Below are positions 38,851-45,892 of a DNA stretch of 64,000 nt, piece by piece. Source of the DNA: Tricholoma matsutake (lineage: Eukaryota > Basidiomycota > Agaricomycetes > Agaricales > Tricholomataceae); contig AP026549.1 in assembly GCA_026075535.2 (NCBI GenBank), forward strand, positions 8,246,001 through 8,310,000, given 5' to 3'. Numbering within the stretch: the stretch's first letter is position 1; each line of letters begins with the position of its first letter. Position numbers and translations under genes: made by a program. The notes below the pieces were generated by a model, which was given only the letters and a program-made list of their open reading frames with translations, had not been told where the DNA came from and ran no database searches.

Positions 38851-39092
38851 ATGCTCGAAAGTTCCACACTTTGACCTAAATCTTTGTTCCTCCTGGGGTC
38901 AAATCAGTTGTGGTGTGGGTAGGTCATGGCATTGGCATCTGGGTGTGGGATGGAGGGACCGTTCATGTCCAAGCTCGGACCATGATCGGGTTCTTTTCAT
39001 TTTATACTGCCCCTAGCAATGGTGTCAAGGAGTCAGTTCGTCAGAAGGGGGGGTCTGTAGGGTCTGTGCAGTATCAAGGGCAATCACCATAG
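38851..39092 (-). other. Gypsy B 3' untranslated region
   Basis: The stretch between the minisatellite and the polypurine tract shows no coding signal. Confidence 0.6.
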
Positions 39093-39360
39093 TTTTACAT
39101 CTTTGTGGATGCTCGGTAGTTTAACATCTCTGCAGACAGTCAGTAGTTTAACATCTTTGCAGACGATCACTAGTTTAACGTCTTTGCAGATGATTGATAG
39201 TTTAATGTCTTTGCAGACGATCAGTAGTTTAACATCTTTGCGGATGGTTGCTAGTTTAATGTCTTTGCAGACAATCGATAGTTTAACATCTTTGTGGACA
39301 ATCGATAGTTTAACGTCTTTGCAGACAATCGATAGTTTAACATCTTTGCGGACAATTGGT
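39093..39360 (-). repeat. 24-bp minisatellite in gypsy B
   Basis: About eleven 24-bp units of the type AGTTTAACATCTTTGCAGAC + GATC. On the minus strand one frame reads an 8-residue repeat (KDVKLSIV with variants), and the period keeps it open. It begins just after the stop of the third ORF (39367-39369), so it would be translated only after a frame change. Confidence 0.9.
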
Positions 39361-39366
39361 TTGCAC

Positions 39367-39670
39367 CTAGTTGTGCTCAGTGGTCTGGGGTGTCGATGTG
39401 TGGGGGTATCGGCTGGAATGCAGCAATGTCCCCAGTTCTCCATGTTGTCTGAATAAGAGCTGCCTTGCCAGCTCAAATCCGCTTTCTTCATTGTAGTGGG
39501 TGTTCCACTGAAGGTCATTCCACAGTAGTGGGCCAATTCCCACTAGTGGTCTTCTGCCTGGGGTTAAGCCATAGCGGTCAATGATGAACTCTTTGGGGAA
39601 GCAGTCCTCATCGTCTAATTCTGCTTCAAAGCACCATTCCTTGAATTGTGCTTTTACCCAGGTTAAGTCC
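39367..39670 (-). pseudogene. Gypsy B third ORF, C-terminal part
   Basis: This continues the ORF that starts at 45892, across the DNA transposon and its 9-bp duplication. It reads WVKAQFKEWCFEAELDDEDC, then YGLTPGRRPLVGIGPLLW and LARQLLFRQHGE, and stops at 39367. Joined, the two parts give about 137 residues with no stop. No known retroviral domain is evident. It sits where envelope-like or accessory ORFs lie, but has no membrane segment. Confidence 0.6.
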
Positions 39671-39845
39671 TAGACTCGTAACCACTCCCTCGTACAGGTA
39701 TGAGCAAGTGTCGATACCTTGTAGAGGGACTGGTGAAGCTGAGTTTAAAAAGGCATAGCATTACAATTTTGTGTATGGAAGCTGAATCAGCAATCTAGAA
39801 ATTTTCCTTTCCCAGTAACTCTTCTATAATAGGAAGGAAATCACA
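39671..39845. repeat. Left terminal inverted repeat of the 6.1-kb transposon
   Basis: It aligns in reverse with 45600-45773. Shared landmarks are CTCCCTCGTACA/TTCCCTCATACA, TGAGCAAG, GTAGAGGGAC, GAGTTTAAAAA, CATAGCATTACAATTTTG, CAGCAATCTAGAA and CCAGTAACTCTTCTATAATA. Differences are mostly small indels and transitions. The helicase ATG lies 16 bp inside it. Confidence 0.85.
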
Positions 39846-39860
39846 GATTTCGGATCTCAG

Positions 39861-42095
39861 ATGACTTTGTCAGTGATCGATAGTGATCACTGTCGCCGCC
39901 GTCGACGAGTTGACGTGCCCTCTCTCTTGTATCTCATGGATTCTGTACCTACTCTTGAGGAATATCTTGACTATGTCTGTCTGGCCTCTGGTGATGAAAT
40001 CATATATCTTCTTTCAAACTCTATCGACGTAAACAAACTGCTGAGAACATATCTGGAGGAACTTCAACAAGATGACAAGATTACAGCTAGCAGGGCTTGT
40101 CTTCTGTCTTGGGCAGTTACTGGAGGCACTCATGTCCCACGAGAACTTCAGCTTCGTGCTTGTCTAGCCACCTACAAGGGTCAAGACTCCTTAATTGGTG
40201 CTGGGACTGGAAATGGCAAGACTCTACCAATTGTTCTCAACCTACTTCTCGATGACCCGAAGGATGGCAGGATTTCTCTCATGATATTGATATTGAAACG
40301 TCTCCAGGTTATGCAGGTATGATATTTTCCAGATGTTACCATGCTGCTATCCCTCACGCGATGAACAGGAGAATGATTTCAACATGAACTACGGCATTCC
40401 AACTATTGCGATCAATGATGACACTCCACGGGAGGATGCGTACTGGAATGTGAGCATATTAAGCACTCTAAGACTGTTATACACCTCTTCTTATTTCTCC
40501 CACAGGAACATGTCCATAATCTAGGATCTCAAACCTCTGGAATGGCATGCCTCATCATTGCAACTGTTGAACAGCTATTCAAGACACCTGAAGGCCACTA
40601 TCCTTGACTCACAGCTCTCGTTCAGCACGAGCTATTCCAGCGCAGGATCAAGCGGATACATGTCGACAAGGCTCACTTCATGCACACCACTGGTCTAGCA
40701 CATAACGGCACCAAGGCCTTCCAACCTGCATGGGCGCAACTAGATGAACTTAAGGCACTTCTTCCCCAGTCTATACCCTGGCAGTCGATTTTGGTGACAT
40801 TCCCAACTCACATACTCAAGACTGTGGAATCGAAAACTCTATGTCCAAACTATGTCTCAATCCATGTTTCCTCAAATCGGCCTAATACCATGTATGCTAT
40901 GCACCATGTGGTTTCAAGAATCGAAGAGTGCCAAAATTATGACTGTTTCCTTCTCAACCCATTTGATCCTGTGTCTCAGCCACACATTTTGATCTTCTTT
41001 GATGATACGGACCTGGCTAGCTCTGTTTCGGATTACTTGGATGGCAAACTTCCTTGACAGCACCGTGGAAAAGGGATAATATGACACTACCATAGTGGGA
41101 TGTCTGAACAATATCTTTGTGAGGTGCACCAGGCCTTTACCGAAGAAGACAGCATATGCAAGATATTATGTGCAACATCCAGAGAATCCATTGTAAGTCT
41201 GGCTTCAGTTGATTGCTTGTTCTCATGAACTCCTCAACAGGGCGTTGACTTCCCCGATGTCAAGATTGTATGCAATGTTGGTCTTCCCAGCAGTGTTGTT
41301 GATGTTCTTCAGTGAGGTGGTCGAGTCGGTCGTCGTGATGGATCTCAGGGCTTATTTGTGCTATTCTATGAGCCATGGGCATTGACAATCCCTCTCGATG
41401 AGTATGCTAACAGTAGATCTGATGACCCTGACCGCCCTCATGTCCTATCAAAGCCTACTGCATCAAGGAAGGAATGCGCACCTCTCTCCTGTGTAAAGCT
41501 AGTACAATGTCAAACCTGTCTTTGGGAACTCTTTGCTTCTTACTTGGGTGACAACGCAGCCAATGGTGCACTACTATCTTCCAAGTGTGTCCATACTGAT
41601 GTTTGCTCTGAAGCCCTGCACTATAACATGACCTTTTGCTGTGATCAACATGATGATGATGTGTTCGACCTCAATGGATTTTTGCCTAGTCTTATGTACA
41701 CAGGTGTTTTGCTGTCTACTCTGACAAAGCGCAAGGAACCGCCCGCCCCTCGAGTGAAGAAACAACTAGTGAAAGATAGGCAGGCTCTCGACCACCGTCT
41801 CATTCCATGGTTGACATCTGCAAGTCAAAACGATCATCTTCGTGGTGTGCAGGCGGTTGTCGATATACTCTCCGATCGTAATTGCAGTATCCTTGTTTGC
41901 GCCCATCCAGTTTCACTTTCTTTGCCTAATATCATTACCAAACTTTTAGATGAGACAGAAGAGTGGGGGGAGGAGTGGTCAGCACCACTGCTGGATGTGA
42001 TATCCCAATACGACAAGGACATTTCTTCTTTGGTGGTCAAGAACAAGGCTTTGCAATCTCAACCGTCTCAGAAGAAAGTAAAGATTAGTCATTAA
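39861..42095 (+). pseudogene. RecQ-like superfamily 2 helicase, four exons, inactivated
   Basis: Exons 39861-40316, 40369-40449, 40506-41192 and 41241-42095 are joined by introns of 52, 56 and 48 bp with GT...AG ends, and the frame is kept. Motif I is GAGTGNGKTLPI (about 40198-40233), Ia LILKRLQVMQ, II VDKAHF (about 40663), IV HYHSGMSEQYL, V GVDFPDVKIV, VI GGRVGRR (about 41320). An extended C-terminal domain has several Cys. Breaks: motif II is DKAH where the family has DEAH, and TGA codons stand before LTALVQHE, QHRGKG, HYHSG and GGRVGR, where arginine is usual. Such helicases unwind DNA 3'-5'. In this element it may assist transposition or replication, which is inference. The gene ends 17 bp from its neighbour's stop. 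Confidence 0.8.
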
Positions 42096-42112
42096 CTATG
42101 AAAATGTACAGT

Positions 42113-45100
42113 CTAGTTGTTGTCTTCAACCCCTTCCCCATTTTTGTTGTCTTCTTCCCCATCTCCAAACTCTGCAAACTCTGGCACTGGCATTTCATCA
42201 TTCTCTGGTAGTACTACCCTCCCTGCTGCCATATCCTGTACCTTCTTGTTAAATGTTGCCAATGAAGATGCTGCGAATTTCTCTTGGCCTTCAGTACGCA
42301 AATCGGGTACAGATTTTGTGCTGGACTGCCCATCCCGCACCAACACCACTTCTTGTGAGTGTAACTCCCATGCTTTGTTCACTATGTGCCACACAAGCTT
42401 ACAGGTATCAACCACCTTATGCATTGAGCCTTGATAATTAGTGTGCATGGATTGTGCGACCTTGGTTTTGATGAGTTGAAGATAGTTGACAGCTGCCGAG
42501 ATGTTGCCAAGTCTTTCCCAGTTTGCATATATCCCCTTTGCAGCAAAGAGTGTATATGAGGATAAGAATTAGTTTCAGTCAGTAGAACACTATCTAGGGG
42601 AATCAGCTAACCTTTAGATACCATATAATATGCTCAATATTCAAATCCATACCCATAGCATGACCTGGTAAGCCCGAGACATTGATAATCATGTTGTCAC
42701 GCATGATATTTCTTAACAGTCATTAGTGATTGCTACCGCAGAAACAAGAACGTCAACATACGCAAACTCAGGGGTCCAGACCTCTTTGAGATTGAATAGG
42801 AAATGTAAAACTTCAGTTGAGTAATTGTTTGATCCTGCAGCACGAAAAATGCATGCAAGATCAGGCAGAATGTCTTTGACTCGTCCAAAATCACCATCTG
42901 ATATGGCTTTAACAAGTTCTATAACATAAAGTAAGTCACACATAAGACATACTACATTTTCATGAACAATATCATCGGGCTGGGATTTTGGTGGATTGGG
43001 AGTGATATCGTCGTCGGGGATCATCTCATCTTCAAGTTCGGGGCCACTGGCATCACCATCAACACCTGAGCTTGAAGGTTTAGGTGGCTTTGTTGCTGGT
43101 TTGAATTTTGGGGCTGGGGTTGCATATTTCTGAACAATGATACGTGCCAAATCCAGGAGAATAGAAGGAGTAGGATTTGACTCTGCAAAAGCCTCAAAGG
43201 ATGAGAATCCACATATGTCACGCCATGTGTTTATAACAAGCCCATCAAGAATCTGGGTAAGAGCAGATAACAATGTGTGAAAGTCGGGGTGATCTGCATT
43301 TAGCCGAACTTTTTCAAGGACTGCAAATAAGTGTGACAAGCTCCCTAATTGACTAATTGTGCCTTGGTATGTGTGAAGAAGTGCCCATATCAGATTCATT
43401 ATTAGATGGAATACCCCAAAACCAAGCTGAAATATCTCCCAACGTGTCCATGGAGTAAGGTCCTTTTTGTGCATTGCCTGAGCACCACAATTGCAAGCGT
43501 TTGTGAGCTGGTCATGAATTGCGGGGATTGCAAGGTCATTGAGATCAGCCGGATCGCGCTTGAGTTGTACAAGGTAAATATCATCATGAACAAGGAGGTT
43601 CCCCTTCACTGATGCTTCCTCAATAGTTGAGACTCTAAGCAGAAAGAATTTGGTTTTGTGGTTTGGCGAGAGTGGGCGATGTGGTCGGTGTTGGAGATCG
43701 GGGTGCTTGTGAAGGTGAGAAAATCCAGAGACATATTTGATAAGTATCTTGACAATGTTGACTTGAGATTGGAACTGGTACGATTTCATGGACTGGATAG
43801 ATGGACAGAGGTCTGATATCTTGAGTGAACCTGCTTTCACAAAACAATCCATCATTGATGATATTTTCATGTGTTCTGGATTGGCACCCAGTACTTCAAA
43901 TAGAACACCAACAGTTCCTGATTGTACTTTGTTTGGGGAGTTCGGACCTTGTTCTGGGTGGATAGAGGTTGATTGATTATAATTGTTGTACTGAATACCA
44001 TGTGGACCTGCAGCGAGCATGCGAGCATCGTCCAGTGACTGCTTTGCAAGAGCTTGAATAATAGAGAAAATGGAAGTGTATGACATCGATAAACAGGCTT
44101 GGTTTAGAATGTTGATGAGCTGTCAAGATGCACCCATGGACCATGCCATCAGACTGAGCCCAATTTAAACCTTGCATGAACGATACAACCTAAGGTAATG
44201 CACCTGAGAACTGATAACACTCCATCCCTGATCAGAGCTTTAGTTCATTTGAATTGAACAAAATAAACATAGATGGTCACCGTGTGACGATTCCTTGATT
44301 TAGATGTCTTAGGCTTAATTTTATCTTCCTTTGTTTCTGTCGCCACCTCGAGAACTGTGGTCCACACAGGTGTCATATCCAAACTGATTTGTTCCATGAG
44401 CCCATTGATGTCCCATTCCGAAACAAACTCGGGCATTATCTCGTGTGTCGCCATGCTAAGCTTAGGCTTTGCATTCTCCATTTCATCATGAATGATATCA
44501 CACACAAGATCAACCGCACATGGCTTCATCCATTCCTTCATGTGGCGACGACCTTTCTCATGGTTCCAAATGATGTCTAGAAGTTTCTCGAGCTTTGGTG
44601 AATGTGCATCTGTAAAGAATGTGGTCTGGTATGTGGCAAAATCATTTGTAGAATCGTCCAGAACAAGCGCAAGAAATTCCGAAGGTGGCATGCAAGCGTC
44701 ACAAAGCACAGTTAGGATACTGTGGAGGGCTTCCATTTTTGTATAATGTTTTTTCCATGGATGGGGGACAGGACGTGATGGTATTACTTCGATATTTTCA
44801 CCATGGGATGTATCATCAAAGGCAGGTTCAAGGGGATCATAGAAAGCATCAGGAGTTGGATTAACAGACAATGGAGACAGTAGTTGATTTGAGGCAGGGG
44901 TAGAATGACTCGGACTCGGAGAATGGCTAGGATGGCTGTGAGTCAGTCCTGTCGAACATTGAATTTTGTAGACAGTCAGACAGCATTACTGATACCCCAA
45001 GCATATTGACTGATGATAGCAAGGGTGGCTGGGGAGGTGTACTGATAACATGGCTTTGGGTCAGGTTGGCCATCTGTGAGCTAAGTTAATTATAGTTTAC

Positions 45101-45481
45101 AGTGGGTAAATGAACATACCTCATGGAAACGGACCTATTTTCAGCCCTGAAGTTGCAACAGGGATTCAAATCCCACACGTACATATTGTCTGGAGTGTGA
45201 TTTGATGGTGTTTGCAGTGTGAAAAGTCTGCAATGTGCAGATGTTGTTGGCATATGCTGGGGTGTTGCATGAATTGAAGTTTCCGTGAAACTTGAGATGT
45301 CCATGTCCCATGGATGGTTTTGCCTTATACCTCTTCCTGTTGGGGGTTCTGCTATCTGGGAATGCATTGTAGGAACATTTGGATTAAATGTAATAGTTTC
45401 TTCATGAGGACTGTGTGCCATTGGGTTTTGAATCTTGAATGTTGAGAAGCCTGGAAGATTTTGTAGAGACTTGTTAGCCAT
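42113..45481 (-). CDS. DUF6589-type protein, multi-exon, possible transposase
   Basis: A likely start is at 45481 (MANKSLQNLPGF). The next clear exon (44871-44270) is acidic and helical. The main exon (from about 44086) is open for 457 codons to its intron, with SGTVGVLFEVLGANPEHMKI, LLVHDDIYLVQLK, WEIFQLGFGVFHLIMNLIW and SHLFAVLEKVRLNADHPDFH. An intron at 42712-42761 (50 bp) leads to MRDNMIINVSGLPGHAMGMD, and one at 42536-42611 (76 bp) leads to the last exon, which ends in acidic residues at 42113. The order and the NVSGLPGH box match DUF6589 proteins, expanded in Agaricomycetes and of unknown function. The join near 44090-44190 is not resolved. Unlike the helicase it has no in-frame TGA in its main exon. 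Confidence 0.7.
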
Positions 45482-45599
45482 GATATTGAGGAGAAGGTAT
45501 TGATATGATGAGTGGTATACGAATCAGGAGGGTATGCAGCACGACATGTCAACGTGTTGTGAAATTCAAATTTTTGCTTGAGATCATTCAACATCTTGA

Positions 45600-45773
45600 A
45601 TCTTCTGAAGGATCAGCTTCCTATTATAGAAGAGTTACTGGGAAGGGAAATATTCTAGATTGCTGACATATGTTCTTTGAACAAAATTGTAATGCTATGG
45701 CTTTTTAAACTCAGTTGTACCGGTCCCTCTACATTGACGCTTGCTCATGTATGAGGGAACGGTCACTGGTCTA
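45600..45773. repeat. Right terminal inverted repeat of the 6.1-kb transposon
   Basis: Reverse partner of 39671-39845, ending GGTCTA at 45773 before the duplication GTTAAGTCC. The DUF6589 gene starts about 120 bp inside it. Confidence 0.85.
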
Positions 45774-45892
45774 GTTAAGTCCATCTTCGTGCTCCTTTGT
45801 GCATAAAGGCAGCATCTTGGGCACGTCGAGGATACTCTCCTTATCCAGTCGTCTCTTGTTAACCAGAATATGATTCCATGGGGGCATTCCAA
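45774..45892 (-). pseudogene. Gypsy B third ORF, N-terminal part
   Basis: The ATG at 45892 reads MECPHGIIFWLTRDDWIRRV with a Cys pair (TCPRCC) before the transposon insertion at 45773. Together with 39367-39670 it forms one short ORF downstream of pol. This small Cys-containing protein is unrecognised, and no promoter of its own is visible. Confidence 0.55.

What the first reader, a model, noticed from the sequence alone, without database searches (positions are those of the whole stretch)
39671..45773. Compact TIR transposon encoding only a RecQ-like helicase and a DUF6589 protein
Seen directly: a perfect 9-bp target duplication (GTTAAGTCC), TAGAC...GTCTA ends, ~170-bp imperfect inverted repeats, and exact restoration of a gypsy ORF on excision. 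Only two genes lie inside, tail to tail with 17 bp between stops. Known: RecQ-like helicases and DUF6589 proteins are both expanded in Agaricomycetes, and DUF6589 has no assigned function. Inference: DUF6589 may be a transposase or recombinase working with a helicase, which would explain both expansions. I know of no described superfamily with this pair.
Basis: partly seen in the sequence, partly recalled or inferred. Interest (0 to 1): 0.92.

Follow-up and report, generated by a model that had tools for sequence, protein, structure and literature searches.

The report
Mushroom transposon: DUF6589 as its transposase
A mushroom jumping gene carries two genes, and the one whose function was unknown looks like the enzyme that moves it, which may explain why mushroom genomes hold so many copies of it.

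Summary
Window 39671-45773 is a 6,103-bp TIR transposon with a perfect 9-bp target duplication. It encodes a RecQ-type helicase and a DUF6589 protein, tail to tail.

It belongs to a family. Of 8 copies examined that have both ends, 5 have different perfect 9-bp duplications. Between subfamilies both genes are under purifying selection. Two DUF6589 loci at 21-23% protein identity have their own TIRs, a 9-bp duplication and the same convergent helicase.

The claim that no described superfamily has this pair is probably wrong. Published AcademH elements (helicase-encoding Academ lineage, fungi and animals, 9- or 10-bp duplications) fit everything I could test. Whether DUF6589 is the Academ transposase could not be tested: no Academ sequence was at hand and the AcademH paper was not held.

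What seems new is the link from DUF6589 to a transposase, which two searches of the held literature did not find. The window copy itself looks dead.

The parts
39662..39670 (.). left copy of the 9-bp target duplication GTTAAGTCC
   Evidence: only two occurrences in the window; single copy in empty sites elsewhere in the genome
39671..39836 (+). left terminal inverted repeat, TAGAC...
   Evidence: 80% identical to the right end; score 167 vs at most 25 in 200 shuffles; similar ends elsewhere in the genome (40 of 125 candidates scored)
39861..42095 (+). RecQ-type helicase gene; model exons 39861-40316, 40369-40449, 40506-41192, 41241-42095; four in-frame stops in this copy
   Evidence: gene model, stops, TIGR00614 E 1.6e-20, BLM E 4.9e-13
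42113..45481 (-). DUF6589 gene, predicted DDE transposase, about 1005 aa; model exons 45481-45120, 45080-45011, 44949-44269, 44227-44204, 44119-42762, 42711-42612, 42535-42113 (N-terminal and fourth exons tentative)
   Evidence: PF20231 E 3.4e-69, gene model, fold, triad
45617..45773 (-). right terminal inverted repeat, ...GTCTA
45774..45782 (.). right copy of the 9-bp target duplication

Best explanation
This is a decayed copy of a DNA transposon moved by a DDE transposase, which is the DUF6589 protein. DUF6589 is predicted to fold as an RNase H-like core (first D on strand 1, second D after strand 4, E in a late helix) with a large helical insertion, as in hAT, P-element, Transib and RAG1 enzymes. 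It would bind the TIRs, cut the ends and join them to target strands staggered by 9 bp, leaving the 9-bp duplication. The convergent RecQ-type helicase is a conserved accessory protein of the element, probably unwinding or processing ends or gaps. The closest described kind is AcademH, and I think it is one (about 0.7). Shown here: TIRs, 9-bp duplications, copies, empty sites, past purifying selection on both genes, recurrence in diverged families, fold similarity of models, conserved triad. Inferred: catalysis, the helicase's task, cut-and-paste rather than copying, Academ membership.
For: 5 of 8 copies with both ends have different perfect 9-bp duplications; empty sites; both genes collinear in these copies; dN/dS between subfamilies 0.12-0.26 (helicase) and 0.15-0.28 (DUF6589, apart from 0.38 and 0.41 in two pairs with the fragmented L013); independent families L042 and L048; two AlphaFold models whose top VIA rows (1-38 and 1-18) are all DDE transposases, RAG1 or retroviral integrase; D-D-E triad aligned between clades; co-occurrence and co-divergence with the helicase in other species.
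Against: Foldseek alone gives no match below E 0.001 and mixes in unrelated chains; the VIA output warns that middling Z can reflect common arrangements. 3 of 8 complete copies have no duplication, and 5 of 8 other DUF6589 loci show no TIR plus duplication. L043 has no helicase match. No activity shown; triad distances were not measured.
Confidence: 0.86

Rival explanations
1. DUF6589-RecQ elements are a superfamily of their own, not Academ, with an independently acquired helicase.
For: No paper in the held library names DUF6589; the profile has no relative of known structure by sequence; no Academ sequence could be compared.
Against: Helicase, 9-bp duplication and fungal hosts all fit AcademH as described in PMC10045372 and PMC10799480 (passages).
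Confidence: 0.22
2. DUF6589 is the transposase but the helicase is a passenger that transposition does not need.
For: L043 has DUF6589 without a helicase match; accessory genes in other transposons vary.
Against: Helicase dN/dS 0.12-0.26 between subfamilies; pairing in 7 of 8 further loci; co-divergence r 0.80.
Confidence: 0.12
3. A non-autonomous element of another superfamily (MULE, KDZ) that captured two genes.
For: 9-bp duplications are also typical of MULEs (recalled); many TIR elements capture genes.
Against: The same gene pair lies within different ends in L042 and L048; both genes show selection; DUF6589 itself has a DDE-like fold; Pfam scan of 7 ORFs found no MULE or KDZ domain.
Confidence: 0.03
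4. KolobokH, the fungal Kolobok lineage with a RecQ helicase.
For: RecQ helicase in a fungal DNA transposon (passage in PMC9587614).
Against: There the helicase lies downstream of the transposase domain; here it is a separate gene on the other strand. Kolobok duplicates TTAA (recalled); here 9 bp of varied sequence.
Confidence: 0.03

Closest known systems
AcademH, helicase-encoding lineage of the Academ superfamily (Kojima 2020; paper not held, known here through passages of other papers)
   Same: Encodes a helicase; 9- or 10-bp duplications; found in fungi including Basidiomycota (passages).
   Different: Not known: no Academ sequence could be compared. Gene order, strand and termini of AcademH were not seen.
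KolobokH
   Same: RecQ helicase, fungal DNA transposon (passage).
   Different: [quoted passage not shown] TTAA duplication (recalled).
hAT (Hermes), P element, Transib/RAG1 transposases
   Same: Best structural alignments of both DUF6589 models; DDE core with helical insertion.
   Different: No sequence match in the PDB profile search; duplications of 8, 8 and 5 bp and no helicase gene (recalled).

Membership tests
AcademH | encodes a helicase beside the transposase | tested here: met
   RecQ-type helicase; in 7 of 8 further loci
AcademH | 9- or 10-bp target duplication (passage in PMC10045372) | tested here: met
   9 bp in 5 of 8 complete copies and in L042, L048
AcademH | Academ-type DDE transposase by sequence | not testable with these tools
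   no Academ sequence and no AcademH paper held
DDE transposons | RNase H-like core with D-D-E triad | tested here: met
   two predicted models; triad conserved; predicted, not experimental
[quoted passage not shown]
   separate gene on the opposite strand
KolobokH | TTAA target duplication (recalled) | tested here: not met
   varied 9-bp duplications
Zisupton / KDZ | 8-bp target duplication for Zisupton (passage in PMC12730594) | tested here: not met
   9 bp
MULE | MULE transposase domain | tested here: not met
   Pfam scan of the 7 ORFs inside the element gave only DEAD, DUF6589 and sub-threshold chance matches
hAT | 8-bp duplication (recalled) and hAT sequence domain | tested here: not met
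   9-bp duplications; no hAT domain, though Hermes is the best structural match
Helitron | no TIRs and no target duplication (recalled) | tested here: not met
   both present

The most novel reading that the evidence does not exclude
DUF6589 plus a RecQ-type helicase defines a separate, large superfamily of DDE transposons in which the helicase is an obligatory partner of the transposase, and most DUF6589 genes and many RecQ-like genes counted as expanded host families in Agaricomycetes are this one mobile element.
Probability: 0.22. Interest if true: 0.78.

Novelty: new member of a known kind. Interest (0 to 1): 0.58.

Why it matters
It gives a testable function to a Pfam family of unknown function that is abundant in mushroom genomes: 117 matches in this genome (exon pieces, so fewer genes; 102 of 249 candidates scored) and none in 14 control genomes. 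A DDE transposase kept together with a RecQ-type helicase also makes the role of helicases in DNA transposition a clean experimental question.

Tried and rejected
Rejected: a MULE or KDZ element with captured genes (no such domain in the window copy; the pair recurs within different ends); KolobokH (strand, duplication); Helitron (TIRs and duplications present). I first took E725 of P0002 for the last catalytic residue and moved to E768, because the Hermes, P-element and RAG1 alignments end about as far beyond their catalytic E (residue numbers recalled) and because E768 aligns with E526 of the other clade; no coordinates were available to measure distances.

Led nowhere: papers naming DUF6589 (0) or PF20231 (4, off topic by title, not opened); PDB sequence search with the DUF6589 profile (one match, E 0.33); the AcademH paper (not held); a genome-wide count of helicase loci (not completed).

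Dropped before counting: matches under 55% identity, pairs with 80 or fewer codons, codons with stops, and the variable first DUF6589 exon. The co-divergence test used 8 pairs: the window and the 7 pairs judged to share a contig by species and contig length only. In one search the scan near L042 also gave other exact matches, up to 12 bp, lying inside the TIR and a TIR-like stretch of the right flank; I took the 9-bp one because it sits exactly at the TIR edges. In one search the third catalytic residue of the window was misread through an intron; the model has it. My first count of helicase stops in the window copy was three; a recount gives four.

Full report
WHAT IS THERE. The element occupies 39671-45773 (6,103 bp), flanked by GTTAAGTCC at 39662 and 45774, the only two places in the window with that 9-mer. 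The TIRs (39671-39836, 45617-45773) are 80% identical; their alignment scores 167 against at most 25 in 200 shuffles. One gene lies on each strand, tail to tail, stops 17 bp apart: a RecQ-type helicase (TIGR00614 E 1.6e-20, below that model's curated cut-off; BLM E 4.9e-13) and a DUF6589 protein (PF20231 E 3.4e-69). My gene models have 4 and 7 exons; the short DUF6589 exon 44227-44204 and its N-terminal splice sites are tentative. Joined flanks with one copy of the duplication match the same genome at 87-96% identity (40 of 307 candidates scored); the junction is exact in 3 of 4 loci realigned, and L038 did not align on the one strand compared. The target lies just 3' of an integrase/chromodomain ORF.

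HOST. The window lies in G000, 161,040,721 bases in 13 contigs. The closest DUF6589 homologue is from Tricholoma matsutake (74% identity over 79%), and a 161-Mbp chromosome-level assembly of that species exists (passage in PMC11595502). The host is probably T. matsutake; this is inference.

A FAMILY. One search scored 40 of 125 candidates for the left end and 40 of 66 for the right end. I fetched 20 stretches (19 places) and tested termini in 11 sequences, the window and 10 loci. Eight have both TAGAC...GTCTA ends. Five of these 8 (window, L010, L011, L012, L020) have perfect, mutually different 9-bp duplications. Three (L019, L021, L022) have none; L019 and L022 have matching flanks in opposite orientation, so one is probably a duplicate of the other with its surroundings. 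The other three (L015-L017, about 1.1 kb, shared flanks) lack one terminus. Both genes are present and collinear in the 8 complete copies, with extra insertions in L010.

SELECTION. Between subfamilies dN/dS is 0.12-0.26 for the helicase and 0.15-0.28 for DUF6589, apart from 0.38 and 0.41 in two pairs with the fragmented L013, at dS 0.50-1.72. Within subfamilies it is 0.42-0.92. That is the pattern of genes selected while the element moved and decaying after insertion, and argues against recent capture. Each of the 10 copies compared has at least one stop within the coding pieces, so none of them looks intact.

OTHER FAMILIES IN THE GENOME. PF20231 gives 117 matches (exon pieces, so fewer genes; 102 of 249 candidates scored) and none in 14 control genomes. 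I fetched 8 DUF6589 loci outside the set above (L041-L048). Seven of 8 have a convergent helicase match, in L044 only a weak one; L043 has none. L042: TIR of 258 bp (92%), GCTGTGGAT, DUF6589 22% identical to P0002. L048: TIR of 180 bp (93%), CCTGTGATG, DUF6589 23% identical; its first 13 bases agree with those of the window element at 10 of 13. L047: TAGAC ends and a 9-bp duplication with one mismatch. L045 and L046 have inverted repeats but no duplication; L041 has one recognisable end; L043 and L044 have no enclosing repeat. So 3 of 8 show TIRs and a 9-bp duplication, one imperfect.

OTHER SPECIES. Seven of 25 helicase homologues share species and contig length with a DUF6589 homologue (120 of 142 listed): Lyophyllum atratum twice, T. 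matsutake, Infundibulicybe gibba, Galerina marginata, Coprinellus aureogranulatus (g14280/g14281) and Marasmius tenuissimus (009383/009384). I did not see the contigs themselves. Distances of the two proteins over these 7 pairs and the window correlate (r 0.80; 213 of 40,320 permutations as high).

MECHANISM. Most likely DUF6589 binds the TIRs, makes the strand cuts and joins the ends to target strands 9 bp apart; gap filling leaves the duplication. The helicase may unwind ends, take the complex apart or help gap filling. One author links duplication length in Academ to the accessory enzyme, helicase or nuclease (passage in PMC10045372). Excision versus copying is not decided by these data.

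KNOWN OR NEW. AcademH generates 9- or 10-bp duplications and encodes a helicase (passage) and is reported from Basidiomycota, Ascomycota and Mucoromycota (passage in PMC10799480). The AcademH paper was not held and no Academ sequence was at hand, so membership is likely (about 0.7) but untested on its central feature. For DUF6589 as a transposase I found no paper: 0 with DUF6589 and 4 with the string PF20231, off topic by title, in a library that lacks most subscription journals. Of the papers cited I saw passages only. hAT, P, RAG1 and Kolobok duplication lengths and catalytic residue numbers are recalled.

Noticed in passing
window 39861-42095 and 42113-45481 compared with L011 and L019: The two halves of the window element have different nearest relatives: helicase dS 0.74 to L019 but 1.11 to L011, DUF6589 dS 0.95 to L019 but 0.52 to L011. 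This hints at recombination between subfamilies.
   Followed up: no
window 39089-39353: A 27-bp tandem repeat array (9.8 copies) lies about 300 bp left of the insertion.
   Followed up: no
whole window and element: CpG is depleted (observed/expected 0.46 in the element, 0.37 in the rest of the window), suggesting decay through methylated CpG; several stops recur at the same codon in different copies.
   Followed up: partly
L015, L016, L017: Three 1.1-kb deletion derivatives share flanks and lack the same terminus, so they are one event copied with its surroundings.
   Followed up: partly
L046 372-786 and 6246-6671: A 426-bp inverted repeat at 96% around a DUF6589 gene, overlapping helicase matches at both ends and without a target duplication; perhaps a rearranged copy.
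   Followed up: no
L019 and L022: Two full copies without target duplication have matching flanks in opposite orientation, pointing to a duplicated larger segment on one contig.
   Followed up: no
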